From: Deltaproteobacteria bacterium
Lineage (GTDB): Bacteria > Desulfobacterota > DSM-4660 > Desulfatiglandales > HGW-15
Direction: 5' to 3'
Length of the DNA stretch: 24,848 nt
Assembly: GCA_016932235.1 (NCBI GenBank)
Contig: JAFGDF010000298.1
Location: forward strand, 1 to 24,848
Shown piece after piece: positions 6,949 through 21,462 of the stretch. A model generated the notes under the pieces. The model saw only the letters and a list, made by a program, of their open reading frames with translations, was not told the DNA's origin and ran no database searches. Both the position numbers and the translations under genes were made by a program. How positions within the stretch are numbered: position 1 is the first letter of the stretch; every line of letters begins with the position of its first letter.

Positions 6949-8511
6949 CTAGAATACGGCAGACGGCCGAATGGATGGAAACAACGAAGCGTCAGTGTGA
7001 GGGATAAATTTAGCCGCATTGAACATATTCATGAACTCTTGGTTAACGTTCAGCTCGATATAAGTGATCCTGTCTCTGATATCACAAGCCCTTGCCTTCA
7101 TTTCTGAAGACAGCAAGGCCAGTGTCGCTCCTTCAAGCGAACTGTTTCCCAGCGATTTATATTTTTCAAGAGGCAGATCGGGAAGCATCCCGATGGTGAC
7201 TGCCGATAGGGGGTCCACATAGGTTCCGAAAGTTCCGGCGATAAAAAATTCATTCACCTCGCTCATGGGCACGTTAACCATTCCGGATATAGTGGAGAGG
7301 ATGGTAAACATGGCGGCCTTTGAGCGAAGGAGCCTATCGATATCCGTCTGGCTTAATGTTAACTCTCTGCCACAGGCACTCTCCTCGGCCTTCACTAAGA
7401 TAAAATGATTTGTCCCCTCCAATTCTTTCAGCCGGTCTCCACATCTCTTTACATCATACTTCCCGCGCATATCAATCATACCTGCAAGAAAAAGATTTGC
7501 CACGAGATCAATGAGACCCGAACCGCATATACCCGCTGCCGGTTTGTTGTCGATTGTCCTTAACACGAGGTCTTTGGAAACAGGATCTATCATCACACTA
7601 TCTATTATCCCCGGCCCAGCCATCATACCAATGCCTGCAACATCTCCCTCCAGAGCCGGGCCGGCTGCTCCTGCGCAGGCCACCATCCACTCTCTGTTCC
7701 CCATGACGACCTCGGCATTTGTTCCCATGTCCACAAGGATCGATATATCCTTTTTTCGATAGATCCCTGACGACAGGATGCCGGCTATCAGATCTCCGCC
7801 AAAATAGCTTCCCACATTAGGCAAGACAAACACCGGGGCCCGGGGATTGATATCAAGATCCAGATCTGCCGCATTCATGGTATCGGGACAATTAATGACC
7901 GGAATGTAGGGTTCCCGGCAGATCCAGTAGGGGTCCAGCCCTAAAAAAAAATGCGTCATTGCTGTATTACCCGAGGCGGACAATCCAATGATTCTTTCCT
8001 TTTCTATTCCGTTTTCATTTGCGAGCGATGATATTTCCTTATTAAGAGCTTTTATCAGCAGTGATCTTAGCTCATCGAGACCCCCATTCCTGGATGAATA
8101 TTTGATCCTTGTAAGGATATCAGGCCCTATTTCGATCTGGGGGTTCAAATAAGATCGCTCATCAATAACCTTCCCGGTTTCCAGATCCAAAAGACGGACG
8201 ACCAGCGTCGAACTCCCCAGGTCGATTGAAAGGCCGAAGTATCTCCCCTCTCCAGGTGTAAAAATATCGATTATCCTCCATCTGTCGCCCATGCTGTAAA
8301 CCGCGACCTCCGGGTGGTAACCGGACTGTCTGAGAGCGTGCGGGATTTTTCTGACTGCGGAAATATCAACGTTGATATCCGCAGAAGAAACAACTTTTTT
8401 TATTTCCCCGGTCAGCCGATCAACATCAGCGGTGTTATTCTTCAGGCTTGGCGGATCTGTTTTAATCCTCAGCACTCTTATCCATCCATCTTCCCTGCGG
8501 GTTCTCTCCAT
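6949..8511 (-). CDS. RACo-like ASKHA ATPase (DUF4445), without the ferredoxin domain
   Basis: A 520-residue protein of the reductive activator of corrinoid proteins type. These enzymes use ATP to drive an electron onto the cobalt of corrinoid methyltransferases. The ASKHA phosphate loop (GLSIDLGSSTLV, 93-104), the second loop (LVDMGTNAEVV), GICGSG and the late FIAGTFG motif are clear. The first 90 residues resemble the usual linker (DPPSLKNNTADVDRL). Family members normally carry an N-terminal [2Fe-2S] ferredoxin domain of about 80-100 residues with clustered cysteines; none is encoded here. The frame is open only about 25 codons further upstream, then stops, with no cysteine motif. A promoter candidate at 8548-8576 supports the ATG at 8511. 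The corrinoid partner is not in the window. An Fe-S partner in trans, or a different role, is possible. Confidence 0.85.
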   Translation of the reverse strand: MERTRREDGWIRVLRIKTDPPSLKNNTADVDRLTGEIKKVVSSADINVDISAVRKIPHALRQSGYHPEVAVYSMGDRWRIIDIFTPGEGRYFGLSIDLGSSTLVVRLLDLETGKVIDERSYLNPQIEIGPDILTRIKYSSRNGGLDELRSLLIKALNKEISSLANENGIEKERIIGLSASGNTAMTHFFLGLDPYWICREPYIPVINCPDTMNAADLDLDINPRAPVFVLPNVGSYFGGDLIAGILSSGIYRKKDISILVDMGTNAEVVMGNREWMVACAGAAGPALEGDVAGIGMMAGPGIIDSVMIDPVSKDLVLRTIDNKPAAGICGSGLIDLVANLFLAGMIDMRGKYDVKRCGDRLKELEGTNHFILVKAEESACGRELTLSQTDIDRLLRSKAAMFTILSTISGMVNVPMSEVNEFFIAGTFGTYVDPLSAVTIGMLPDLPLEKYKSLGNSSLEGATLALLSSEMKARACDIRDRITYIELNVNQEFMNMFNAAKFIPHTDASLFPSIRPSAVF

Positions 8512-8681: not shown

Positions 8682-9326
8682 ATGATATCTTTTACGAACT
8701 TCAGATACTCTGAAAAAAGACCAGGATCGGCGTTAATATCCTTTCTATTGGTTTTATCGCTCTCGGTCCCATGCAATTTTCTGTTAAAAAACGCCTTTGC
8801 TCAAAGGGCTATCTACTCAATCCAGCTCGGAGCTTTCTGTGATGCTGATAACGCCAGGGAAATGACGGAAGATTTGATAAAGCTGGGACATCATTCCTTC
8901 TATCGAGAAGAATTTGATGGCGGGAATGTCTTATATCGAGTCTATATCGAAAAATATGCGACCCGGGCAGAAGCAAAAAAAGAGGCGGAGATACTGGAAA
9001 ATCTGGATCTGATATCAGGTTATATCATTAAGGAATTGCCGGATGATTCCAAACACCCTGTTAAAAAGCAACATGCCGACGCAGCCGCATGTTTCTGCCT
9101 GCATGTGGAATCATACAATGAAAAGGCGAACGCTGAAAAACGTGTGGATGAAATGAAGGAGTATGCTCACAGGGCATTTTATCTTGAGGAAGAAGTATCC
9201 GGTGGAAAATGGTATAGAATATATATAGGAGATTTCAGCAGCGAGGAGGATGCCAGGCAAAAGGGGGCTGAGCTGAAAAATAAAGGTATAATCAACTATT
9301 TTAAGCCTTCCAGGCTGCCAGACTAA
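8682..9326 (+). CDS. Exported protein with two SPOR domains
   Basis: A 214-residue predicted periplasmic or envelope protein. Residues 12-40 form a signal peptide (KRPGSALISFLLVLSLS core, AFA-Q cleavage site). Two SPOR repeats follow, at about 42-115 (AIYSIQLGAF...LYRVYIEKYATRAEAKKEAE) and 133-208 (CFCLHVESY...WYRIYIGDFSSEEDARQKG). SPOR domains bind glycan strands stripped of stem peptides at division sites, so a role in septal or cell-wall processes is likely but not proven. There is no other catalytic domain. The ATG overlaps the stop of a five-codon frame (8664-8682) that has its own GGAAG, so the start may be coupled to it. The stop codon lies inside a palindromic repeat (9311-9340). Confidence 0.88.
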   Translation: MISFTNFRYSEKRPGSALISFLLVLSLSVPCNFLLKNAFAQRAIYSIQLGAFCDADNAREMTEDLIKLGHHSFYREEFDGGNVLYRVYIEKYATRAEAKKEAEILENLDLISGYIIKELPDDSKHPVKKQHADAAACFCLHVESYNEKANAEKRVDEMKEYAHRAFYLEEEVSGGKWYRIYIGDFSSEEDARQKGAELKNKGIINYFKPSRLPD

Positions 9327-9340
9327 GTCCGGCAGACTCC
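9311..9340. repeat. Palindromic repeat, copy A (overlaps the SPOR-gene stop)
   Basis: CTGCCAGAC-TAA-GTCCGGCAG forms a stem with one mismatch. The TAA in the loop is the stop codon of the SPOR gene. It belongs to the family whose core reads like GTCGGACTTTGTCCGAC. Confidence 0.6.
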
Positions 9341-9451
9341 TTTCAAGCTTGATAAGGTGTGAGGGCCCTCTTTTTGTTGGCTTAAGTTGTCTATTTGTGT
9401 TACTAGTCACTCCGGGACAGGATGGTTCCTTAAGTGATCTATACCGTCGCC

Positions 9452-9484
9452 AGCAGCATGCCGGCCAAAGTCCGACAGACTGCT
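9452..9484. repeat. Palindromic repeat, copy B
   Basis: AGCAG...CCGGCC-AAA-GTCCG...CTGCT forms an imperfect hairpin with an AAA centre. It lies in the gene-free 9327-9577 interval, in which I see no gene. Confidence 0.6.
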
Positions 9485-9577
9485 AGAGGCTGGGAATATC
9501 CCCATTGGCCGCCTCCGGCTGGTCAAAAGCGGGTAGAGTTAGAAATATCTTAAAGCATATACATCGGAGGGGTCGTA

Positions 9578-9751
9578 ATGGATATCAGCAGGAAGATCGG
9601 GATTGGAATCGTGATGATTATTCCCACTTTTGTCGGATCTGGAGCCCTATGGGGAATCTTTCATAGCTGGATCGCCGTTATTGTTTGGATCCTCATAATG
9701 GGGCTCGTATATAAAAACATCATTTGCGGCAGATTCTCACAAGCCAGATAA
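9578..9751 (+). CDS. Small two-helix membrane protein (57 aa)
   Basis: A short frame starting at ATG 9578 with a strong ribosome site (CGGAGGGG, about 5 bases upstream). It encodes 57 residues: a short basic start (MDISRKIG), a first hydrophobic helix (IGIVMIIPTFVGSGALWGIF), a brief turn (HSW), a second helix (IAVIVWILIMGLVY) and a basic tail ending FSQAR. This layout is typical of a small inner-membrane hairpin protein. The family is not recognised. It is followed 33 bases later by another small gene in the same direction, so the two may be co-transcribed. Confidence 0.65.
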   Translation: MDISRKIGIGIVMIIPTFVGSGALWGIFHSWIAVIVWILIMGLVYKNIICGRFSQAR

Positions 9752-9784: not shown

Positions 9785-10012
9785 ATGACTGATAAACCGG
9801 GCAAGATAGAGCATTATGAGAAACAATTTGGAATAATTGCCATCGAAAAGGGATTTCTCCGTTCAGATGAGCTTATTGAGGCACTAAAGATACAGGTGGA
9901 AGAAGATATTCGGTATGAAACGCACCGTTTAATCGGAGAAATCCTGCTTGATAAAAACTACATAACTGTTCAACAGATCCAGGAAGTACTTAGTGTAATT
10001 TTTTCGAAATAA
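9785..10012 (+). CDS. Small MshEN/T2SSE_N-like protein
   Basis: A 75-residue soluble protein beginning MTDKPGKIEHYEKQFGIIA. The pattern FGIIAIEKGFLRSDELIEAL, then GEILLDKNYITVQQIQEVL, resembles the two-helix repeats at the N-terminus of type II secretion and MSHA ATPases (GspE/MshE N domain), which in some proteins bind c-di-GMP. Here the domain stands alone without an ATPase. The start is supported by GAGGTG about 10 bases upstream. Function is unknown; a signalling or adaptor role is only a guess. It lies 33 bases after the small membrane protein. Confidence 0.7.
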   Translation: MTDKPGKIEHYEKQFGIIAIEKGFLRSDELIEALKIQVEEDIRYETHRLIGEILLDKNYITVQQIQEVLSVIFSK

Positions 10013-10138
10013 CCCCCCGTTAATAATCCCTATGTGAATTTAATGGAACCCCATGAGCAAATCCCGTGGTTTCCTGCAAATGCGGATAAAGGAAAAGCCG
10101 CTGAGCTAAGAGGGTTAAGGAAAAACTCAGGTTGCCTT

Positions 10139-10169
10139 GGAGGCTGTCGGACTTTGTCCGGCATGCTCC
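10139..10169. repeat. Palindromic repeat, copy C
   Basis: GGAG...TGTCGGAC-TTT-GTCCGGCA...CTCC hairpin with small internal mismatches, about 125 bases downstream of the small MshEN-like gene. Confidence 0.65.
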
Positions 10170-10209: not shown

Positions 10210-10537
10210 GTCCGGTTAGGAAATTGCAGTTGAAGAAAAATACCGGATGGCTGTCAATAAAGCGATAAAATAACAGTAACTCAATATCCGGTTGCCGGAA
10301 CCGCGGTATGGGGAACTCTTTTTATCGGCGAAAACACTGGAAGCAGGATTATTGCGTAAGGCGCATGCCAGGCGGGCGGGATGCTTCTCGGTTGTCCAAC
10401 CTTATCTGGCCCTGACAACGACTGAGATGAACCGTCGCCCGCCTCGTAAGGCAATATGCGTAAAACTTGCCAGGAACGAGTTCGCCCGAAAAAAGAGTTC
10501 CCCATACCGCGATCTTTACGCAATTTCCTAACCGGAC
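10210..10537. repeat. MITE-like palindromic element with nested inverted repeats
   Basis: Two sets of inverted arms define a gene-free element. The outer arms (10210-10227 and 10520-10537) are 18 bases and perfect, reading GTCCGGTTAGGAAATTGC and its complement. The inner arms (10302-10323 and 10490-10511) are 22 bases and perfect, containing GGTATGGGGAACTC. The interior is an imperfect palindrome centred near 10405 with GTTGTC (10391) facing GACAAC (10414). No transposase is encoded; the short open frames on both strands are by-products. The rest of the 10013-10639 interval shows nothing else I can name apart from copy C at 10139. Confidence 0.7.
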
Positions 10538-10639
10538 ATCAATGTGAATAATTGATTCTTAACAACAAAATTACTCATTCATTAACCAGGTTTTTCTTAT
10601 AGATAAAAAATCTGTTCAAAAAAATTTGAGAAAATTTTA

Positions 10640-11905
10640 TTAGCAGAATGTCGGGCAAAGCCCGACATTCTGCTTGTAAAGACACAGCGGATTAAGTAAT
10701 TGTATCAGGATCTCCGCTCCTCGCTCAATAGTCTCACTACCTTCCGGGATAGTAATTAACGCATCTTTCAAGGCCATGGATTTTAATCTGCTCCCCTCCT
10801 TAAGGGGTTTAACGAGAAACAAATTCCCTTGCGTGCCGGTAATATTTGCGTGAATAAATTGAGTCCAATCCCTGTCCCCCTGCACCTTTTCGGTTAATCG
10901 TGCCCATACCAGGGGAAACAAGCTGTGAATATCCCCTTTCATCCTTAGCAACCCGGGCAGCGCCAGCTGAAGAAAAGCAATCTCATTTGAAGGAGGTCCC
11001 CCCGGTAGACAGAAAAATGGCCTGCCCTCTAAAAGACCGAAGCTAATCGCCTTTCCAGGACCTATCTTGACCTTATTATACAGACCGTACCAGCCAAGAT
11101 CTTCCAGCACTTTTATTGTCAGATCCCTGTCACTGCCCCAGGCTCCGCCGCTCGTGACGAATGCATCCACCTGAGTGAGGTGTTTCTCGATAGATGCCGC
11201 TATATTATCTCTCTTATCCCTTGCTATTTCGGTCGTAAAAGAGATGCCCTTGGTTGAAAGCCATGCGCAGATAGCAACCATATTACTCGCGTACAGCTTT
11301 CCGTCAGGAAGATGATGCCCCGGTGCGACCACCTCATCTCCTGTGGCGATTACGGCCACCCTTGGTGACCTGTACACAACCACCCTGTCCAGTCCTGCTG
11401 ACGCAATAAAACCAATAATGGGAGGAGTAAGTTTGGTCCCTTTTTCCGCTATCACTTCCCCTAGCGCGTTATCAGTGCCTCTTTTGAGCACATTTCTTCC
11501 TGCCCTCGCATTTCTATAGCAATAAACCTCATTATCCATATACCGGCTGAACTCTTCCGCGAGAACTGCATCCGCCCCATCCGGCAAAGGCGCGCCCGTG
11601 GTGACCTTTATCGCATTGCCCCTTGAAACAGTCATAGCGGATCTGTTTCCCGCCGTTGCATCGCCGATAACTCTTAATCTCACGGGGTTATTAAAATCCG
11701 CTTCTTTTAGATCATTCGAAAAAACCGCGAAGCCATCCTTTAAGGAGCAGTCCGTTGACGGGCTATCCACTTCGGAGATCACATCTTCAGCCAGAATCCT
11801 TCCGGAGATATCCCCCAGGGGGAGTTTTTCAGTACCCAGCAAGGGAATATTGGAAAATGTCAGATCAAATGCCTCTTTCAAACTTGCGAATCTTTTTATT
11901 GCCAT
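10640..11905 (-). CDS. moeA: Molybdopterin molybdenumtransferase
   Basis: A 421-residue MoeA/gephyrin-E-type enzyme that inserts molybdate into adenylated molybdopterin to make Mo cofactor, needed by formate dehydrogenases and other Mo/W enzymes. Visible motifs are LKDGFAV, VTTGAPLPDGADAVLAEE, the molybdopterin-binding TSGGAWGSDRDL (GGxSxGxxD type, here GGAWGSD) and LPGGPPSNE. The C-terminal domain IV is present. The last residues (KQNVGLCPTFC) and the stop codon are encoded by a palindromic repeat (10642-10674) and are not part of the family. It lies alone on the minus strand, divergent from the ABC-F gene. No strong Shine-Dalgarno is visible before the ATG. Confidence 0.94.
   Translation of the reverse strand: MAIKRFASLKEAFDLTFSNIPLLGTEKLPLGDISGRILAEDVISEVDSPSTDCSLKDGFAVFSNDLKEADFNNPVRLRVIGDATAGNRSAMTVSRGNAIKVTTGAPLPDGADAVLAEEFSRYMDNEVYCYRNARAGRNVLKRGTDNALGEVIAEKGTKLTPPIIGFIASAGLDRVVVYRSPRVAVIATGDEVVAPGHHLPDGKLYASNMVAICAWLSTKGISFTTEIARDKRDNIAASIEKHLTQVDAFVTSGGAWGSDRDLTIKVLEDLGWYGLYNKVKIGPGKAISFGLLEGRPFFCLPGGPPSNEIAFLQLALPGLLRMKGDIHSLFPLVWARLTEKVQGDRDWTQFIHANITGTQGNLFLVKPLKEGSRLKSMALKDALITIPEGSETIERGAEILIQLLNPLCLYKQNVGLCPTFC
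10642..10674. repeat. Palindromic repeat, copy D (encodes the MoeA tail and stop)
   Basis: A perfect 15-bp stem (AGCAGAATGTCGGGC paired with GCCCGACATTCTGCT) around an AAA loop. It contains the last ten sense codons of moeA and most of its stop codon, and could also act as the transcript-end hairpin. Confidence 0.85.
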
Positions 11906-12025: not shown

Positions 12026-12054
12026 TTGACAAAACCTGATAATATCTCATTAAT
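12026..12054 (+). promoter_or_regulatory. Candidate promoter for the ABC-F gene
   Basis: TTGACA (12026-12031), a 17-base spacer and ATTAAT (12049-12054). The -10 touches the edge of the diverged repeat copy at 12053, so that copy would be the transcribed leader. The -10 match is only moderate. Confidence 0.4.
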
Positions 12055-12097
12055 GTCCGGTTAGAAAATTACATAAAGATCGCAGTATGGAGGACTC
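12053..12097 (+). repeat. Diverged copy of the 10490-10537 repeat arm
   Basis: Over 45 bases this segment matches the reverse complement of 10493-10537 at 39 positions, by hand alignment. Five of the six differences read G there and A here. It lies between the moeA and ABC-F genes and covers the first in-frame ATG (12087) of the ABC-F frame. Confidence 0.75.
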
Positions 12098-14098: not shown

Positions 14099-15157
14099 TC
14101 ATATCCCTGTCCGGAGGACTATCTTGCCGGGAGACTCCCTGATGAATTCACCAATTTTCATTGCATCCTTAACTCCCTTTACCTTGAGCCCCGATACAAG
14201 ATCATCCGCCTGATCGCTTCCTATGGCGATAAGAAGCCCCCCCGAGGTCTGTGGATCAAAAAGTATATCCATAAGGGCCGGATCAACGCTCTCACTCCCG
14301 ATCAGACATCGATTTCTGAAATCCCGGTTGCGGTGAGCGCCCTCGGGGACTATCCCCATCCTGGAATAATTGAGCGCCTCACGGATTATGGGAACATGGT
14401 CAGGATAGATCTTCAGCCCCGTGTCTTCCCCGTCAATCATTTCACAGGCATGCCCGAGGAGTCCGAATCCTGTCACATCAGTGCAGGCGCTGATGTCAAA
14501 ACGGGCGAACTCTTCCGCGGCCAGGTTATTTAACTCAGACATGATGCTAGTTACTTCAACGACCAGATCTTCATCAGCAAGGTTCCCTTTGATCGCCGTA
14601 TTGATTATTCCGGTACCTATCGGCTTGGTAAGCACAAGGCTATCACCGGCTTTTGCTCCCCTGTTCGTGATGAACCGGCCCGGATGAACAATGCCGGTCA
14701 CCGCCAGTCCGTATTTGAATTCTTCATCCTCCACGCTGTGACCGCCTAAAAGAAGAGCTCCGGCTTCCTTGATTTTTTCCAGGCCACCTTTTAATGTATC
14801 CTGCAATACTTCTATACCCATTGACCTAATGGGAAAACAGATAATATTCATAGCTGTCAAAGGCTTTCCGCCCATCGCATAAATATCGCTGAAGGCATTG
14901 GCTGCTGCAATCTTACCGAAAGAGAACGGGTTATCAACGATAGGAGTGAAAAAGTCCACGGTCTGGATAATGGCAAGGTCATTGCTTATCCTGTACACAC
15001 CCGCGTCATCATTGGTTTCAAAACCGACAAGCAGATCAGGATGCTTCGGGATGTCAAGCCCGCAAAGGGCCTTTTCCAGGTCACCCGGACCCAGTTTTGA
15101 AGCTCACCCGGACCCCTTTACTGTTTCGGTAAGTCGTTTCGGTCTCTTTTCTTCCAT
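14099..15157 (-). CDS. selD: Selenide, water dikinase, selenocysteine-containing (in-frame UGA)
   Basis: SelD makes selenophosphate from selenide and ATP, the selenium donor for selenocysteine and selenouridine. A naive frame begins at an internal GTG (14998) and lacks the catalytic N-terminus. Extending upstream gives ATG 15157 and reads MEEKRPKRLTETVKGSG, then TGA (15104-15106), then ASKLGPGDLEKAL. This is the SelD active-site loop with selenocysteine (U18) in the place often taken by cysteine. The product is 352 codons including U, matching the usual length of about 345. Downstream motifs include VGFETNDDAGVY, FFTPIVDNPFSFGKIAAANA, GGHSVEDEEFKYGL and DPQTSGGLL. GGGAT lies about 8 bases before the ATG. 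A candidate SECIS hairpin follows the UGA. selA, selB and tRNA-Sec are not in the window, so recoding is inferred. Confidence 0.93.
15076..15094 (-). promoter_or_regulatory. Candidate bacterial SECIS hairpin in selD mRNA
   Basis: On the minus strand, 9 bases after the UGA, a 7-bp stem (C-G, two G-U wobbles, then GGTC paired with GACC) closes a five-base loop CGGGU. The distance and G-rich loop resemble the fdhF-type element recognised by SelB. Hand folding only. Confidence 0.6.
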
Positions 15158-15540
15158 GATATTCAATCCCCGGGAACCCGCCGGATCTTATCCGACAACC
15201 CCCTGTAATATTTATTGCGATTTTATATCAGATTACCGTTAATAAATCATCCAATTTCAGAACCTCAGAACCATATAGTCTTGAATATCAACTCCAACTG
15301 TCCTATAGTTGGGAAATGGGGTTCTTTTCCAGCATGGTTGTAAGGATCAGAAAAGATATACGACAGGCTTCTAAAAAGTTATTCAATTAATATCTTATTC
15401 TGATTAAATGATATATTATTTTTTATTTTGCCGGGCAAAGTCCGACAGACTGCGAGATTTAGCCTGATGGCTAAATATCGCAGCAGGAAAAGTCTTTTAT
15501 CTCCATTAGCTTCGATTTATACCAAAACCAGAGGTAGGCA
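15158..15540. other. Gene-free divergent region between selD and the helicase gene
   Basis: About 380 bases with no credible gene. It contains a short hairpin (CCAACT...AGTTGG near 15294-15312), an AT-rich stretch (15370-15430), a palindromic repeat half (15430-15448) and a strong 15-bp hairpin (15450-15483). The promoters of the two divergent genes should lie here, but I find no convincing match. Confidence 0.6.
15430..15483. repeat. Palindromic repeat, copy E, plus adjacent hairpin
   Basis: GCCGGGCAAAGTCCGACAG (15430-15448) matches the dispersed palindrome family. Directly after it CTGCGAGATTTAGCC (15450) pairs with GGCTAAATATCGCAG (ending 15483) around a TGAT loop, with one mismatch. Confidence 0.65.
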
Positions 15541-20436: not shown

Positions 20437-21432
20437 ATGCAGGAGATTTCTGAATTGAATGATACTTTTACCATGGATTTAAGCGACACACTGAAATCCG
20501 AGATAGTATGGTTGAATAGATACCTGGAAGATCTCAGCAAGGAATCCGAGGACATTCTTGGCGGCCTTCTCTCCTATGTCCTTGTAAATTCAGGAAAAAG
20601 AATAAGGCCCATGCTGGTTGTTCTGGGTTCCAATCTAGGAGAGTCTGATATCAATCACGTAAGACTGGTCGGGGCGGCGGTAGAAATGATTCATATCGCC
20701 ACTCTGGTACATGATGATATCATTGACAAATCCATCCTGAGACGCGGGCAAAAAACCGTTGCCAGCGAGCATGGGATAGACAAGGCGGTACTCCTGGGCG
20801 ATTACCTCTACTCACAGGCATTTGAAAAAATCATGGCAACCTCAAATATTGAAGTCCTGAAAATCATGGCAAAAACAGCCTCGGTAATCTGCAGAGGCGA
20901 AATCGAACAGTTAAATAAAAAGTTTGAGTTTGAAGTATCCGAATATGAATATTATTCCTTTATAAAAAGAAAGACAGCAAGTTTCTTCGGGGCAGCCGCT
21001 CGCTCAGGCGCTGTCATAGCCAACACCGACCTCAGAATTCAGATCGCGCTTGAATCCTATGGCATCAACCTTGGCATGGGTTTCCAGATCAAGGATGATC
21101 TCCTGGATATAACGGGGGACGAAGATGTGGTAGGGAAGACCCTGCATACAGACATGGTGAACGGAAGGATGACCCTGCCTCTGATACATTTCAGGGACAC
21201 CCTGCCCTCTCCGCAAGCTTTTAAAAAATTAATGGATGAAATGGCTCAATCGAATGACAACTTTTCCAAAATTCTGGAAAGGATTAGGGAAGCAGGTTCT
21301 ATCAGATACGCAGAGGACGTGGCCACGCAATACGTTGAAAAGGCGCTGGATAGTCTGAAAATGCTTCCTGAGGGGGAAGCGAAAGATCAGCTTTTCATCC
21401 TCGCGAAACAGTCACTGAAGAGGAAATCCTAG
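20437..21432 (+). CDS. Trans-polyprenyl diphosphate synthase
   Basis: A protein of about 331 residues that condenses isopentenyl diphosphate onto an allylic primer, probably giving the side chain of a respiratory quinone. Both aspartate-rich motifs are present: DDIID in LVHDDIIDKSILRRG (about 93-97) and DDLLD in QIKDDLLDITGD (about 220-224); GKRIRPML near residue 55 is also typical. Small residues before the first motif (MIHIATLVH) suggest a long product, as in IspB/heptaprenyl synthases, but chain length cannot be set by eye. The start is uncertain: ATG 20437 lacks a ribosome site, whereas AGGAG (20441-20445) lies 9 bases before an in-frame TTG at 20455. The stop codon touches a palindromic repeat. 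Confidence 0.92.
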   Translation: MQEISELNDTFTMDLSDTLKSEIVWLNRYLEDLSKESEDILGGLLSYVLVNSGKRIRPMLVVLGSNLGESDINHVRLVGAAVEMIHIATLVHDDIIDKSILRRGQKTVASEHGIDKAVLLGDYLYSQAFEKIMATSNIEVLKIMAKTASVICRGEIEQLNKKFEFEVSEYEYYSFIKRKTASFFGAAARSGAVIANTDLRIQIALESYGINLGMGFQIKDDLLDITGDEDVVGKTLHTDMVNGRMTLPLIHFRDTLPSPQAFKKLMDEMAQSNDNFSKILERIREAGSIRYAEDVATQYVEKALDSLKMLPEGEAKDQLFILAKQSLKRKS

Positions 21433-21462
21433 GAGCCTGTCGGACTTTATCCGTCAGGCTCC
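21432..21462. repeat. Palindromic repeat, copy F (adjoins the polyprenyl synthase stop)
   Basis: GGAGCCTGTCGGA paired with TCCGTCAGGCTCC around a CTTTA loop, with a single T-T mismatch in the stem. It begins at the last base of the TAG stop and may serve as the 3' hairpin of the transcript. Confidence 0.8.

What the first reader, a model, noticed from the sequence alone, without database searches (positions are those of the whole stretch)
15104..15157. selD is a selenoprotein gene: in-frame UGA in the active-site loop
Standard gene calling truncates selD to an internal GTG at 14998. Reading through TGA 15104-15106 from ATG 15157 restores 53 N-terminal codons including GSG-U-ASKLGPGDLEKAL, the SelD catalytic loop, and gives the normal family length. 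The frame is open on both sides, and the catalytic Cys/Sec position falls exactly on the UGA. SelD enzymes with Sec are known, so this is a correction with consequences: the organism should encode SelA, SelB and tRNA-Sec and probably other selenoproteins.
Basis: partly seen in the sequence, partly recalled or inferred. Interest (0 to 1): 0.75.

Follow-up and report, generated by a model that had tools for sequence, protein, structure and literature searches.

The report
Selenocysteine-containing selenophosphate synthetase gene (selD)
The gene for the enzyme that activates selenium (SelD) has an internal UGA that very probably codes for selenocysteine in the enzyme's own active site; this is a real correction to the gene model, but selD genes of this kind are well known in related bacteria.

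Summary
On the minus strand an in-frame TGA (15104-15106) is codon 18 of a 352-residue selD from ATG 15157 to TGA 14099; mechanical ORF calling leaves 299 codons from GTG 14998. The UGA falls on a Cys of solved SelD. Of 69 distinct SelD DNAs, window included, 65 have TGA there and 4 Cys. In 85 genomes of one class, all 70 matches spanning the site contain a TGA. Codons 24, 26 and 27 show reduced synonymous diversity. All 48 close Sec genes keep one of two hairpin registers, 0 of 4 Cys genes do, as expected of a bacterial SECIS. The window's genome is not held. In relatives, tRNA-Sec is found in 13 of 17 genomes, SelB in 14 of 17, SelA in 16 of 17. The nearest relative lacks all three, but appears incomplete and has other TGA-containing genes. 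Sec-type SelD in Deltaproteobacteria was in print in 2006. This is a new member of a known kind; interest is low.

The parts
14099..15157 (-). selD coding sequence with predicted Sec at codon 18 (352 residues plus stop)
   Evidence: Read-through translation; TIGR00476 selD 369.5 bits against cut-off 125, residues 8-316; AIRS and AIRS_C domains
15104..15106 (-). UGA codon 18, predicted selenocysteine
   Evidence: Sequence; aligned with chain residue 17 (Cys) of 3u0o; TGA in 65 of 69 distinct DNAs, window included, Cys in 4
15075..15094 (-). Predicted bacterial SECIS hairpin, two alternative registers: 7 bp with loop CGGGU, or 6 bp with loop UGA
   Evidence: Folds; 48 of 48 close Sec genes (window included) keep the inner stem of register A or the whole of register B, 0 of 4 Cys genes do; codon diversity
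15077..15088 (-). Codons 24-27 (Pro-Gly-Asp-Leu), with reduced synonymous diversity at 24, 26 and 27
   Evidence: P24, L27 and D26 rank 2nd, 4th and 5th of 135 scorable columns
14099..14101 (-). UGA at the end of the same gene, presumed ordinary stop
   Evidence: 5 of 18 window genes examined end in TGA
14999..15157 (-). 53 N-terminal codons lost when the gene is started at GTG 14998
   Evidence: ORF list

Best explanation
This is a selenoprotein gene, selD, from a Deltaproteobacteria/Desulfobacterota-type genome. The ribosome reads UGA codon 18 as selenocysteine because a hairpin just downstream (its loop starts 16 nt after the UGA in one register) acts as a SECIS and recruits SelB with Sec-tRNA(Sec). 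A second UGA ends the gene and is presumed to be read as an ordinary stop. The Sec stands in the N-terminal loop GSG-U-ASK and takes the place of the Cys of Cys-type SelD; that this Cys and the Lys three residues on are catalytic is recalled. The enzyme makes selenophosphate from selenide and ATP, so it supplies the selenium for its own Sec. Shown here: the sequence, its conservation, the codon-level pattern, and the machinery in relatives. Inferred: Sec insertion in this organism, function of the hairpin, and catalysis.
For: U18 aligns with Cys in 3u0o and 2yye; TIGR00476 match. TGA in 42 of 46 genome-contig loci covering the codon and 65 of 69 distinct DNAs, window included; Cys is the only alternative in both sets. 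In 85 genomes of one class, 77 matches in 68 genomes; 70 span residue 18 and all 70 contain a TGA, 7 do not reach it; the codon itself was read in the 30 fetched loci. Reduced synonymous diversity at codons 24, 26, 27. Register A pairs 254 of 288 cells, against 14 to 158 when slid by 1-3; every one of 48 keeps A's inner four pairs (37) or all of B (31). Mean folding z -1.16 over 65 Sec sequences against synonymous-codon shuffles, -0.49 for 4 Cys. Shared neighbours in L001, L002, L025. Strong tRNA-Sec in 13 of 17 genomes, SelB over cut-off in 14 of 17, SelA in 16 of 17; ARAGORN names tRNA-Sec, anticodon tca, in 12 of 12 loci given. FlpD and Fdh-alpha genes with in-frame TGA in close relatives.
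Against: The window's own genome is not held. The nearest relative G001 (74% identity) has no SelA match, no SelB over cut-off and no strong tRNA-Sec; it has 28 tRNA matches against 43-46 in G002, G013, G076, G077 and 4 of its 5 FlpD matches contain a TGA, but none of its 13 Fdh-alpha matches does. The window alone folds unremarkably: z 0.04 on 55 nt, -0.40 on 34 nt and -1.18 on 22 nt, -0.67 against synonymous shuffles. No Rfam SECIS family matched, even at E up to 10. Full register A is intact in only 21 of 48; the either-register count was framed after seeing the data, part of the pairing is forced by the Pro-Gly-Asp-Leu protein sequence, and the 4 Cys controls differ in amino acids there. 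Three of the six top-ranked columns lie outside the hairpin. Sequences are related, so z-scores overstate significance.
Confidence: 0.96

Rival explanations
1. The TGA is a sequencing or assembly error for a Cys codon (TGC or TGT) in a Cys-type SelD.
For: Cys codons stand at this position in 4 of 69 distinct DNAs and Cys in 7 of the 120 listed database proteins, at 56-59% identity.
Against: The separately assembled relatives with the same neighbours (L001, L002, L025) have TGA. In the class census 70 of 70 spanning matches contain a TGA. The hairpin kept by the 48 close Sec genes is present here and in none of 4 Cys genes.
Confidence: 0.01
2. selD is a pseudogene, or is made only as a short form from GTG 14998 that lacks the active-site loop.
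For: Mechanical ORF calling gives that form, and 112 of the 120 listed database relatives begin after the UGA.
Against: Residues 19-53 are conserved as protein (against L083, 15 synonymous and 8 amino-acid differences in 35 codons) and the TGA itself is kept. The short form would lack the Cys/Sec position and Lys21. The starts implied for the 112 truncated proteins scatter from residue 22 to 67, as expected of a gene-caller artefact.
Confidence: 0.02
3. The organism reads UGA as another amino acid throughout (for example Trp).
For: One listed database relative has Trp at this position (P0117).
Against: 5 of 18 window genes examined, selD among them, end in TGA. The residue otherwise found at the position in DNA is Cys. 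Relatives have tRNA-Sec with anticodon tca.
Confidence: 0.01

Closest known systems
Sec-containing SelD of Deltaproteobacteria (Syntrophobacter, Syntrophus, Desulfotalea, Desulfovibrio, Geobacter and others; Zhang et al. 2006, PMC1794560 Table 3, passage seen)
   Same: Same enzyme, related lineage, selenoprotein form of SelD
   Different: No difference of kind found; their sequences were not aligned here one by one
Cys-type SelD, PDB 3u0o (recalled to be the E. coli enzyme) and 2yye
   Same: Same protein family and active-site loop; U18 aligns with chain residue 17, Cys, of 3u0o
   Different: Sec codon in place of Cys, followed by a hairpin-forming stretch
selD of MAGs Deltaproteobacteria AB_3033_Bin_183 (L001) and Zod_Metabat.1361 (L002)
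   Same: 74% and 69% identity, TGA at the same codon, same neighbours: MrfA-type helicase upstream, ABC-F-like gene downstream
   Different: Sequence divergence only; no selA, selB or strong tRNA-Sec match was found in the genome of L001, which appears incomplete

Membership tests
SelD (selenide, water dikinase) | Full-length match to the curated SelD model | tested here: met
   TIGR00476 369.5 bits against cut-off 125, residues 8-316, model 1-310 of 311
SelD (selenide, water dikinase) | Cys or Sec followed by Lys three residues later in the N-terminal loop | tested here: met
   U18 and K21 align with Cys and Lys of 3u0o and 2yye; that they are essential is recalled
SelD (selenide, water dikinase) | Selenophosphate synthesis | not testable with these tools
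   Needs an enzyme assay
Bacterial selenoprotein gene | In-frame UGA aligned with Cys in homologues | tested here: met
   65 TGA and 4 Cys codons among 69 distinct DNAs, window included; 7 Cys and 1 Trp among the 8 of 120 listed proteins that cover the site
Bacterial selenoprotein gene | Conserved coding on both sides of the UGA | tested here: met
   Clear for codons 19-53; weaker for codons 1-17, which are few (eight relatives)
Bacterial selenoprotein gene | SECIS hairpin just downstream with G in the apical loop | tested here: met
   Hairpin 15075-15094; loop CGGGU starts 16 nt after the UGA in register B; either register kept in 48 of 48 close Sec genes. Not significant by single-sequence folding. 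The distance rule is recalled; a conserved apical-loop G is named in a figure legend of PMC1794560
Bacterial selenoprotein gene | SelA, SelB and tRNA-Sec in the same genome | tested here: inconclusive
   Own genome not held; relatives: tRNA-Sec 13 of 17, SelB 14 of 17, SelA 16 of 17
Bacterial selenoprotein gene | Selenium in the protein | not testable with these tools
   Needs mass spectrometry or 75Se labelling

The most novel reading that the evidence does not exclude
The UGA at codon 18 makes full-length SelD depend on its own product. In this lineage, where every one of the 70 class-census matches spanning the site contains a TGA, selD could act as a selenium-dependent positive-feedback switch and not only as a chemical upgrade of Cys; the two overlapping hairpin registers could tune it. 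Against a strict rule, 7 Cys forms at 56-59% identity stand among the listed database proteins.
Probability: 0.1. Interest if true: 0.45.

Novelty: new member of a known kind. Interest (0 to 1): 0.15.

Why it matters
It corrects the gene model: the short form given by mechanical calling lacks the Cys/Sec position. It marks the source organism as a probable Sec decoder, so other genes in its genome that end early at UGA should be re-read. The same truncation is seen in 112 of the 120 closest listed database proteins. It does not change what is known about SelD.

Tried and rejected
A scan of viral contigs matched 3 stretches, none encoding a relative. Rfam gave no SECIS family at gathering scores over the window or at E up to 10 over 14950-15250. 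A scan of all TGA-containing frames of the window against the loci for further selenoproteins gave mostly antisense matches and a cut output; I draw no conclusion from it. Single-sequence folding gives no significant excess stability, so the SECIS case rests on comparison. A sequencing error, a pseudogene and a changed code were considered and rejected for the reasons given under the rivals.

Rows dropped. L042, whose match begins after the codon; hits not reaching from residue 15 or less to residue 60, and duplicates (77 hits, 69 distinct, the window being one). Searches used 48 of the 65 distinct Sec sequences, the window being one: those with at least 51% identity, without L046 and L047 (short matches from records titled Bryobacterales and Acidobacteria). 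Of the other 17, only 3 keep the inner stem of register A and 4 keep register B, so this hairpin sequence is lineage-specific. In one search columns 141, 128 and 190, outside the hairpin, rank 1st, 3rd and 6th, so reduced codon diversity alone is no proof of a SECIS. In some searches only the strong tRNA-Sec matches (69.9 to 80.8 bits) were counted; weaker matches of 50.3 bits and less, some over the 47-bit cut-off, were not, and the first look was capped at 150 candidates in many genomes, G001 and G004 included, so a miss there is not final.

Full report
What is there. On the minus strand, ATG 15157 opens a frame that meets TGA at 15106-15104 (codon 18) and then runs open to TGA 14101-14099. 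The mechanical ORF list gives only the 299-codon piece from GTG 14998. Read through, the product is 352 residues and is SelD: TIGR00476 at 369.5 bits (cut-off 125), model positions 1-310 of 311. It matches the solved selenide, water dikinases 2yye (query residues 7-327) and 3u0o (7-345). The UGA falls on residue 17 of 3u0o, a Cys in GAGCGCK; that this is the catalytic Cys17 of the E. coli enzyme is recalled.

Conservation of the UGA. A scan of genome contigs with the read-through protein found 47 loci. Of the 46 that cover the codon, 42 have TGA and 4 have Cys codons; the 4 (L024, L026, L035, L044) are 46-49% identical, from records titled Clostridium, Lachnospiraceae (two) and Cyanobacteria. 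Joined with the census loci and the window and reduced to distinct DNA, 65 of 69 have TGA, 2 TGT and 2 TGC. A search of 85 genomes of the class of G002 at E up to 1e-30 gave 77 matches in 68 genomes; 17 genomes had none. 70 matches span residue 18 and all 70 contain an in-frame TGA; 7 do not reach it. I read the codon itself in the 30 loci fetched by that search: TGA in all 30. Six genomes hold two SelD matches that both contain a TGA (G001, G009, G013, G041, G081, G087).

Databases. Of the 120 best protein hits listed (7999 scored), 112 begin after the UGA, 7 have Cys there (56-59% identity) and 1 has Trp.

RNA signal. In 48 close Sec-type genes, the window included, codon diversity relative to the set's own codon usage is reduced at codons 24 (Pro: 30 CCG, 18 CCA, no CCT or CCC), 26 (Asp: 46 GAC, 1 GAT) and 27 (Leu: 39 CTG of 48); these rank 2nd, 5th and 4th of 135 scorable columns. 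Their third bases pair in a hairpin. Register A pairs bases 18-23 with 27-32 counted from the T of TGA; register B pairs 16-19 with 25-28 and, in the window, extends to 13-19 with 25-31. Register A is fully intact in 21 of 48, its inner four pairs in 37 of 48, register B in 31 of 48, and every one of the 48 keeps A's inner pairs or B; none of 4 Cys genes keeps either. Register A pairs 254 of 288 cells, against 14 to 158 when the partner is slid by 1-3 bases. The either-or count was framed after seeing the data, the protein sequence forces part of the pairing, and the Cys controls are few and differ in amino acids. The window folds either way, depending on the stretch given; the loop of register B (CGGGU) begins 16 nt after the UGA. 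Over 65 Sec sequences the mean z against synonymous-codon shuffles is -1.16, against -0.49 for 4 Cys sequences; the window alone is -0.67.

Machinery. The window's genome is not held. In relatives' genomes reached through the loci, strong tRNA-Sec matches (69.9 to 80.8 bits, 93-95 nt) occur in 9 of 13 and 4 of 4. SelB over cut-off occurs in 11 of 14 and 3 of 3. SelA over cut-off occurs in 13 of 14 and 3 of 3. In the 14 control genomes of these calls the tRNA-Sec model rings in 14 (over cut-off in 5), SelB in 14 (over cut-off in 2) and SelA in 4 (over cut-off in 1), so only matches over cut-off, and for the tRNA only strong ones, were counted. ARAGORN names tRNA-Sec with anticodon tca in 12 of 12 loci given to it, of the 13 genomes with strong matches (no locus was held for G011). 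Against this, the nearest relative G001 has none of the three, and G014 has no SelB over cut-off. G001 has 28 tRNA matches and G014 has 25, where G002, G013, G076 and G077 have 43-46 and G066 has 36, so both look incomplete. 4 of the 5 FlpD-family matches of G001 contain a TGA; that these TGAs stand at a known Sec position was not examined. Fdh-alpha matches with a TGA occur in G002, G013, G014 and G066; none of the matches of G001 (13), G076 (4) or G077 (3) has one.

Where it comes from. The order RfaE2-like, ComF-like, CxxCxxCC protein, MrfA-type helicase, selD, ABC-F-like is shared with L001 and L025, and the last four, with further window genes beyond, with L002; these records are titled Deltaproteobacteria or Desulfobacteraceae. 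L014 and L003 are short contigs and show only selD; L008 and L011 have selD in other surroundings (the names RfaE2, ComF and ABC-F are mine from domains and recall).

Against what is known. Zhang et al. 2006 (PMC1794560, passages seen) name FdhA and SelD the most widespread bacterial selenoproteins and list SelD among the selenoproteins of many Deltaproteobacteria. Mariotti et al. [quoted passage not shown] PMC8318568 (passages) lists selenophosphate synthetase among the Sec-containing proteins of a marine deltaproteobacterium. Passages of PMC12013277 and PMC9312934 say, the first, that SelD is a selenoprotein in many organisms and, both, that some bacterial SECIS elements do not fit the consensus model. 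The finding is right, useful for annotation, and ordinary in kind.

Noticed in passing
9316-9344, 9459-9487, 10135-10169, 10649-10677, 15429-15457, 21428-21462: A family of about 30-nt imperfect palindromic repeats (like TGCCGGGCAAAGTCCGACAGACTG), mostly in or at the edge of spacers, in both orientations, REP-like; one copy lies about 270 bases upstream of selD, and a weaker one (63%) at 15169-15203 just before its start.
   Followed up: no
10302-10332, 10481-10547, 12045-12097: A second spacer repeat (GAGTTCCCCATACCGCGATCTTT...) in inverted copies, 85-90% complementary.
   Followed up: no
9578-9751 and 9785-10012: Two small plus-strand ORFs (57 and 75 codons) in an otherwise ORF-poor stretch; DNA matches to L001 and L002 at 71-75% identity fall on them. 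Probably real small genes.
   Followed up: partly
15072-15115: The 21-nt stretch over the UGA and the one over the hairpin are direct repeats, 86% alike, 23 bases apart; GGGTCCGGGTGA stands in both, in different frames.
   Followed up: no
G001, G009, G013, G041, G081, G087: Six relatives carry two SelD matches that both contain an in-frame TGA, for example G001 (74% and 55% identity to the window's) and G013 (64% and 55%).
   Followed up: no
P0117: A database relative is listed with Trp at the Sec position; perhaps a UGA translated with a Trp code.
   Followed up: no
6949-8511: RACo-type protein (PF14574, PF17651, PF17650), suggesting reactivation of a corrinoid protein.
   Followed up: no
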